A stretch of 10,496 bases of DNA, taken from Flavobacteriales bacterium. Lineage in GTDB: Bacteria > Bacteroidota > Bacteroidia > Flavobacteriales > Flavobacteriaceae. This document shows, one piece after another, positions 7,128 to 8,222 of this stretch (its first letter is position 1; every line of letters begins with the position of its first letter). The notes under the pieces were generated by a model, which made no database searches, was not told where the DNA came from, and saw only the letters and a list, made by a program, of their open reading frames with translations. Made by a program: the position numbers and the translations under genes. The DNA lies in NCBI GenBank assembly GCA_002737105.1, contig NSHO01000055.1, forward strand, positions 1-10,496, given 5' to 3'.

Positions 7128-7571
7128 TTACTTATTTAAAATTGTTTCAAGTACTTTTACTGAACTTTCTGCTAAAATTAAAGTCTCTGCATTTAAAATA
7201 TCATAAGTATTTAAATCAGATGCTTTTACAACTTTAACACCCTGAATATTTCGGGACGACAAATATACATTGTTATTTGAATCGCCCAATACCAAGAGGG
7301 TTTTTTTATCACTAAGGTTTAAGTTTTTCATTAAATCAATGTAATTTTTGGTTTTTGGAGCTTCAAAAGTAAAGTCCTCTAAAACTGTAATTTTATTATC
7401 TTTTGCTTTATAAGTTAAAGCTGAAATACGAGCCAAAGCCTTTACTTTTTTATTCAATTTAAAAGAATAATCGCGAGGTCTGGGACCAAAAGCGCGACCT
7501 CCACCAATAAATAATGGAGATTTCATTGAACCAGCTCGAGCTCCACCAGTTCCTTTTTGTTTTTTTTCCAC
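7128..7571 (-). CDS. rplD: 50S ribosomal protein L4 (uL4), N-terminally truncated and frame-disrupted
   Basis: L4 is an early-assembly protein whose long loop reaches into the nascent-peptide tunnel. The open frame gives 147 residues from a GTG (MEKKQKGTGGARAGSMKSPLFIGGGRAFGPRPRDYSFKLNKKVK...), ending LILAESSVKVLETILNK. This is the C-terminal portion of L4, including QKGTGGARAGS (equivalent to the E. coli loop around Lys63) and the whole C-terminal alpha/beta domain. Bacteroidota L4 is usually a little over 200 residues. The GTG is preceded directly by an in-frame TAA and is probably not native. The normal N-terminus (MQVEILNISGKK) lies just upstream in another frame (start 7596), joined through an A8 tract at 7560-7567. 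So the window's allele carries a deletion of about 50 codons plus a frame change. It is either a sequencing or assembly error, a pseudogene, or a gene read by slippage. Confidence 0.85.
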   Translation of the reverse strand: MEKKQKGTGGARAGSMKSPLFIGGGRAFGPRPRDYSFKLNKKVKALARISALTYKAKDNKITVLEDFTFEAPKTKNYIDLMKNLNLSDKKTLLVLGDSNNNVYLSSRNIQGVKVVKASDLNTYDILNAETLILAESSVKVLETILNK

Positions 7572-7596
7572 TTATGTTTAATATCTCTACTTGCAT
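7561..7596 (-). pseudogene. rplD: Displaced 5' end of rplD (normal L4 start codon and first 12 codons)
   Basis: An ATG at 7594-7596, 2 bases after the rplC stop, encodes MQVEILNISGKK. This resembles the beginning of Bacteroidota L4, in which the first strand is followed by a Gly-Lys turn. Read on in the same frame, the sequence becomes nonsense (TKRNWWSSSW...) and stops at 7459-7461 after 45 codons. If one A were removed from the A8 run the frame would continue as GKKQKGTGGARAG and give a 155-residue L4 lacking an internal block. I treat this as the true 5' end of the gene, separated from the body by a deletion plus frameshift. Confidence 0.75.
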
Positions 7597-7598
7597 GA

Positions 7599-8222
7599 TT
7601 ACTTTTCTATTAAAACGTAAGACCCTTTTGCACCTGGCACCGAACCTTTAATAAGGATAAGATTTTTTTCAGGCATAATTTTAACTATTACTAAGTTTTG
7701 AACTTTCTTTCGATCACCACCCATTCTACCACCCATGCGATGCCCAGGCATAACACGAGAAGGATCTGAAGATGCGCCTAATGAACCAGGGGCTCTCTCT
7801 CGATCATGTTGACCATGAGATTTGTTAGCGTGCCCTACTCCACTAAATCCGTGACGTTTAACTACCCCTTGGAAACCTTTTCCTTTACTTGTTCCAATAA
7901 TATCGACAAATTCTCCTTCTGCAAATAAATCTACAGTAAGAACATCGCCTAAATTTTTACTTTCCTCGAAATGACGGAATTCAACAATTTTGCGTTTTGG
8001 CGTTGTTTTAGCAATTGCAAAATGACCTTTCATTGCCCCTGATGTGTTTTTTTCTTTTTTTTCATCATATGACAATTGAATAGCTGTGTAACCGTCTTTT
8101 TCATTGGTTTTTACTTGCGTTACCACGCAAGGACCTGCTTCTATAACTGTGCATGGTAAATATTTACCATTGGCATCGAAGAAGCTAGTCATTCCTACTT
8201 TTTTACCAATTAATCCTGACAT
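7599..8222 (-). CDS. rplC: 50S ribosomal protein L3 (uL3)
   Basis: Assembly-initiating large-subunit protein whose extension approaches the peptidyl-transferase centre. The 207-residue product has normal length, beginning MSGLIGKKVGMTSFFDANGKYLPCTVIEAGPCVVTQVKT. The L3 signature GTSKGKGFQGVVKRHGFSG is at 110-128 and the extension GHANKSHGQHDRERAPGSLGASSDPSRVMPGHRMGGRMGGD at 130-170. The position equivalent to E. coli Gln150, methylated there by PrmB, is Ala150. It is 60 A/T-rich bases downstream of rpsJ, and its stop is 2 bases from the original rplD start. Confidence 0.98.
   Translation of the reverse strand: MSGLIGKKVGMTSFFDANGKYLPCTVIEAGPCVVTQVKTNEKDGYTAIQLSYDEKKEKNTSGAMKGHFAIAKTTPKRKIVEFRHFEESKNLGDVLTVDLFAEGEFVDIIGTSKGKGFQGVVKRHGFSGVGHANKSHGQHDRERAPGSLGASSDPSRVMPGHRMGGRMGGDRKKVQNLVIVKIMPEKNLILIKGSVPGAKGSYVLIEK

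What the first reader, a model, noticed from the sequence alone, without database searches (positions are those of the whole stretch)
7128..7601. rplD (L4) carries an internal deletion of about 50 codons and a frameshift
All other complete ribosomal genes here have family-typical length, but L4 keeps only its first 12 codons (ATG at 7594-7596, 2 bases after the rplC stop) and its last ~145. Between them the first helix and the first half of the tunnel loop are gone. The join falls in GGAAAAAAAACAAAAAGG, where the two flanking L4 segments (a Gly-Lys-Lys turn and a Lys-Lys-Gln-Lys-Gly stretch) would both be A-rich. That fits slippage or recombination between short poly-A repeats, or an assembly collapse. 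The remnants are out of frame by one base, so as written the ATG gives 45 residues. A real loss would reshape the peptide tunnel.
Basis: partly seen in the sequence, partly recalled or inferred. Interest (0 to 1): 0.75.

Follow-up and report, generated by a model that had tools for sequence, protein, structure and literature searches.

The report
Collapsed ribosomal L4 gene, probable misassembly
The gene for ribosomal protein L4 lacks 161 bases in this sequence, exactly between two copies of a 10-base repeat, but a matching database protein and the relatives have the gene complete, so this is most likely an assembly error rather than a real change in the ribosome.

Summary
rplD (minus strand, 7596-7128) keeps codons 1 to 12 or 13 and the last 145. 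Against the two nearest genomes it lacks 161 nt, bounded by a 10-nt direct repeat (AAAAAAACAA) of which one copy remains at 7557-7566. The pieces are out of frame, so the ATG gives 45 residues. The biological reading is not supported. A 209-aa database protein, P0001, is the only one of 120 listed that contains the window's 145 C-terminal residues unchanged, and it is whole. In the genus, 34 of 40 genomes match L4: 33 over its whole length, one cut by a contig end. L4 is one unbroken match in 80 of 80 genome-contig loci. The junction is in 0 of 40 genus genomes. The remnant shows no decay: 13 synonymous, 1 non-synonymous codon differences from G001. Over window 979-10496 no other indel changes a gene. 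Best explanation: a false join or collapse at a short A-rich repeat; reads were not available. A fresh lethal or minority deletion is a weak rival. Low interest.

The parts
7128..7596 (-). rplD (ribosomal protein L4) as written: disrupted frame, 161 nt missing against relatives
7557..7566 (-). single remaining copy of the 10-nt direct repeat AAAAAAACAA that bounds the missing stretch; the junction
   Evidence: two copies 161 nt apart in L005 and L007; one copy in the window
7567..7596 (-). 5' remnant of rplD before the repeat, codons 1-10 (codons 11-13 fall in the shared repeat)
7128..7565 (-). 3' remnant: residues 65-209 of L4 plus the stop, in a different frame from the ATG; Pfam Ribosomal_L4 profile positions 50-189 of 190
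7128..7571 (-). 147-aa open frame from a GTG; mechanical, no sign that it is used as a start
   Evidence: no 147-aa protein among the 120 listed matches (the database is clustered at 90%, so shorter cluster members would not show)
7599..8222 (-). rplC (L3), intact neighbour upstream
6836..7126 (-). rplW (L23), intact neighbour downstream

Best explanation
This is an ordinary S10 operon of an uncultured Bacteroidota bacterium whose rplD was shortened in silico. During contig building, scaffolding or gap closing, two ends that share the 10-base string AAAAAAACAA were overlapped, so one repeat copy and the bases between the copies were lost. Shown: the missing 161 nt, the repeat at both edges in the two nearest relatives, and the intact gene product P0001 and intact genes in relatives. 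Inferred: that the loss arose in assembly and not in a cell, and by which step.
For: The missing stretch is bounded exactly by a 10-nt direct repeat in L005 and L007. The only listed protein with the window's exact 145 C-terminal residues, P0001, is whole: 209 aa, on 4 contigs, the longest 24,468 bases. All 120 listed proteins (of 8000 scored) contain an 8-residue word from inside the missing part (HKSKERAE or HKAKERAE); 117 are 209-215 aa long and three (173, 193, 194 aa) start late. L4 is whole in 33 of the 34 genus genomes with a match, of 40 searched, and is one match from residue 5 or less to 195 or more in 80 of 80 genome-contig loci. 37 of 41 sampled relatives have the family, one of them (G010) only as a contig-end piece. 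Junction in 0 of 40 genus genomes with up to 3 mismatches. No decay: synonymous/non-synonymous codon differences from G001 are 13/1 (rplD remnant), 23/4 (rplC), 8/1 (rplW), 11/0 (rpsJ), 37/1 (rplB). From 979 to 10496 the other five indels against G001 are small and at or outside gene ends. Contigs of two other genus genomes begin near here: G010's inside rplD, G008's inside rplW. Local assembly errors, and incomplete or incorrect gene sequences in public databases from uncurated metagenome assemblies, are described in PMC7111523 (passages).
Against: No reads, and the window's own assembly is not held, so the error was not seen directly; that the window comes from a metagenome assembly is itself inferred from its relatives. 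The collection tools say that records of the window's genome or of one very near may be left out, so a sister with the same junction could have been hidden. A 10-nt overlap is shorter than a usual de Bruijn k-mer (recalled), so it needs a gap-closing or overlap step. A real deletion between short direct repeats would look the same in sequence. P0001's source column is blank, so its link to the same sample is unknown.
Confidence: 0.86

Rival explanations
1. A real deletion by replication slippage between the two 10-nt repeats in some cells or in one sequenced cell. It makes L4 null and is a dead end or a minority variant caught by the assembly.
For: Repeat-bounded loss of the classic slippage form; the flanks are otherwise clean and undecayed, as expected if very recent.
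Against: The frame is broken. [quoted passage not shown] An identical C-terminal allele exists intact. None of 40 genus genomes has the junction, though very near records may be left out of the collections.
Confidence: 0.11
2. A real, fixed and working short L4, made from the GTG start or by slippage on the A run that joins the two frames, giving a ribosome without the N-terminal part of L4 and the first arm of its tunnel loop.
For: A 147-aa open frame with a GTG start exists, and the junction holds an A run; the remnant still scores 180 bits to Pfam Ribosomal_L4.
Against: The A run is there in the intact genes of the two nearest genomes as well, so it was not evolved for slippage here. The 45-aa product finds no homologue, and no 147-aa relative is among the 120 listed. 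Genus genomes and genome-contig loci keep the part (33 of 34 matching genomes; 80 of 80 loci). The four neighbouring genes compared differ from G001 mostly at synonymous sites, with no sign of compensating change.
Confidence: 0.02
3. A broken second copy beside an intact rplD elsewhere in the genome.
For: The window's own assembly could not be searched.
Against: The copy sits in the canonical operon place between rplC and rplW. In the searches each genome with L4 has one match (37 of 37, 34 of 34).
Confidence: 0.01

Closest known systems
Bacterial ribosomal protein uL4 (rplD, Pfam PF00573), closest solved relative by sequence PDB 7jil chain D, 209 aa
   Same: Place in the S10 operon, and residues 1-12 and 65-209 of the usual 209.
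   Different: 161 nt missing and frame lost; L4 of the nearest relatives is whole.
Local assembly errors in metagenome-assembled genomes (PMC7111523)
   Same: A gene made incomplete at a local site in an otherwise clean contig, in line with the passages read.
   Different: The text has no occurrence of 'direct repeat' or 'deletion', so it does not describe this very form; it identifies such errors by missing read support, which could not be checked here.

Membership tests
Ribosomal protein L4 gene, intact (PF00573) | One open frame of about 209 codons covering the family | tested here: not met
   ATG frame 45 aa with no Pfam match; the other frame covers profile positions 50-189 of 190 only
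Ribosomal protein L4 gene, intact (PF00573) | Operon place between rplC and rplW | tested here: met
   (neighbours named from their translations)
Collapse or deletion between short direct repeats | Repeat at both edges in the intact relative, one copy left at the join | tested here: met
   AAAAAAACAA twice, 161 nt apart, in L005 and L007; once in the window
Assembly error | No original read supports the junction | not testable with these tools
   no reads; own assembly not held
Assembly error | Intact version of the same allele in other assemblies | tested here: met
   P0001, with the exact 145 C-terminal residues, is 209 aa on 4 contigs; protein level only, source not shown
Pseudogene under decay | Relaxed selection in the remnant | tested here: not met
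   13 synonymous to 1 non-synonymous codon differences from G001, like the neighbours

The most novel reading that the evidence does not exclude
A living Bacteroidota strain whose only L4 lacks residues 13/14-64 (the N-terminal part and the first arm of the tunnel loop), made from an internal start or by slippage on the A run, and whose ribosome still works.
Probability: 0.02. Interest if true: 0.8.

Novelty: not a real feature. Interest (0 to 1): 0.07.

Why it matters
As biology it most likely does not matter. It is a useful caution: a lone, repeat-bounded break in a core ribosomal gene of an otherwise clean contig should be checked against sister assemblies before a change of the ribosome is claimed. 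If a short L4 were real, it would show which parts of L4 a ribosome can do without.

Tried and rejected
Searching for the junction or a relative of P0001 in viral contigs gave nothing, as expected for a chromosomal operon. The 45-aa product has no homologue. A second rplD in the same genome could not be sought because the own assembly is not held. Six of 40 genus genomes had no rplD match (G008, G013, G023, G043, G055, G056), nor did G038 of the class sample. I tested these seven for L3 and L23, with G010 and, as controls, G001 and G005. Six of the seven match neither, and G008 matches L23 only, cut at a contig start. So missing or broken contigs explain them better than a loss of L4. Caveat: the L3 family scores low even in G001 and G005 (48-52 bits), so 'no L3' is the weaker of the two tests. 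Promoter-like sites in 7000-8700 were at chance level (6 found, 6.0 expected) and no terminator was found; Rfam gave no match at gathering scores. Literature searches; two found no paper. I read passages of PMC10931766, PMC9045200 and PMC7111523 and one passage of PMC4014445 (rplD is among the 79 core genes of its tree). Lawrence et al. 2016 on the L4 and L22 loops was seen only as a reference-list entry; the paper is not held. No structure was predicted: a fold of the remnant would not tell artefact from deletion.

Full report
What is there. The window holds, on the minus strand, fusA (cut at the window end), rpsJ, rplC, rplD, rplW, rplB, rpsS, rplV, rpsC, rplP, rpmC, rpsQ, rplN, rplX, rplE, rpsN, rpsH, rplF, rplR and rpsE (cut at the other end). 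Genes other than rplD are named from the translations, by my own knowledge of these families. The best genome contigs match is an uncultured Bacteroidota MAG at 92% identity over the L4 remnant. The window's own assembly is not held; the nearest held genome, G001, shares 28% of the window's sampled 31-mers.

The break. The rplD start (7594-7596) follows the rplC stop by two bases, and the stop codon of the 3' part ends at 7128. Against the rplD loci of G001 and G005 (L005, L007) the DNA matches on both sides at 93-96% identity but skips 161 nt. In both relatives the string AAAAAAACAA occurs twice, exactly 161 nt apart, and the window keeps one copy at 7557-7566. The loss removes L4 residues 13/14 to 64 of 209 and shifts the frame, so the ATG frame ends after 45 residues. 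In the G001 locus 14 of 1,273,302 position pairs 20-400 nt apart share a 10-mer, so a join on a repeat is not chance: overlap or slippage at the repeat made it (inference).

Consequence if real. The remnant lacks Pfam profile positions before 50. By established knowledge of L4 this includes the first arm of the tunnel loop. The loop residues named as facing the tunnel in E. coli, R61 and R67 (PMC9045200, passages), would match residues 66 and 72 here by my own alignment from memory, so the tip would remain. [quoted passage not shown] A strain with this as its only rplD would not be expected to grow (inference).

Relatives. Among 40 genomes of the genus, 34 match the 209-aa L4 and 33 of these match over residues 1-209 with no inner stop; the 34th (G010) begins at a contig end, residue 141. 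The other six (G008, G013, G023, G043, G055, G056) have no match. I tested these six and G038 from the class sample for L3 and L23: none matches L3 (a weak test, since the controls G001 and G005 score only 48-52 bits), and only G008 matches L23, cut at the contig start. In the first sample 37 of 41 relatives had the family, one of them (G010) as a piece. The junction, with up to 3 mismatches, is in 0 of 40 genus genomes and, exact, in no viral contig. The tools say that records of the window's own genome or of one very near may be left out of these collections.

Same allele, intact. Of the 120 proteins listed (8000 scored), only P0001 contains the window's 145 C-terminal residues unchanged. 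It is 209 aa long, agrees with the window over residues 1-13, and is on 4 contigs. All 120 contain an 8-residue word from the missing part; three of them (173, 193 and 194 aa) start late and so lack other N-terminal residues. P0001's source column is blank, so I cannot say from which sample it comes.

No decay. Codon differences from G001 are 13 synonymous to 1 non-synonymous in the rplD remnant, and 23/4, 8/1, 11/0 and 37/1 in rplC, rplW, rpsJ and rplB. Over window 979-10496 there are five further indels against G001 (1, 1, 1, 14 and 1 nt). Three lie in the rpsJ-rplC spacer. The 14-nt one is placed at the rpsJ stop, but rpsJ itself aligns over its 306 nt without a gap. The last is in a T run that reaches into the fusA stop codon. 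None changes a protein by my reading.

Verdict. A lone, frame-breaking, repeat-bounded loss in a core ribosomal gene, in a clean operon, with the same C-terminal allele intact elsewhere, is best read as a false join or collapse in the assembly (0.86). A real but lethal or minority deletion by slippage gives the same letters and cannot be excluded without reads (0.11). A working short L4 is very unlikely (0.02). That metagenome assemblies carry local errors, and that skipping curation spreads incomplete or incorrect gene sequences, is said in PMC7111523 (passages); its text has no occurrence of 'direct repeat' or 'deletion'.

Noticed in passing
L127 (G010:C6) and L128 (G008:C34), position 1: In two other genomes of the genus a contig begins inside this same part of the S10 operon (inside rplD in G010, inside rplW in G008), which may mean that this place is hard to assemble.
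   Followed up: partly
window 8223-8286 and 8622: The only other indels against the nearest genome G001 over 979-10496 are small: 1, 1, 1 and 14 nt in or at the edge of the rpsJ-rplC spacer, and one base in a T run at the fusA stop.
   Followed up: partly
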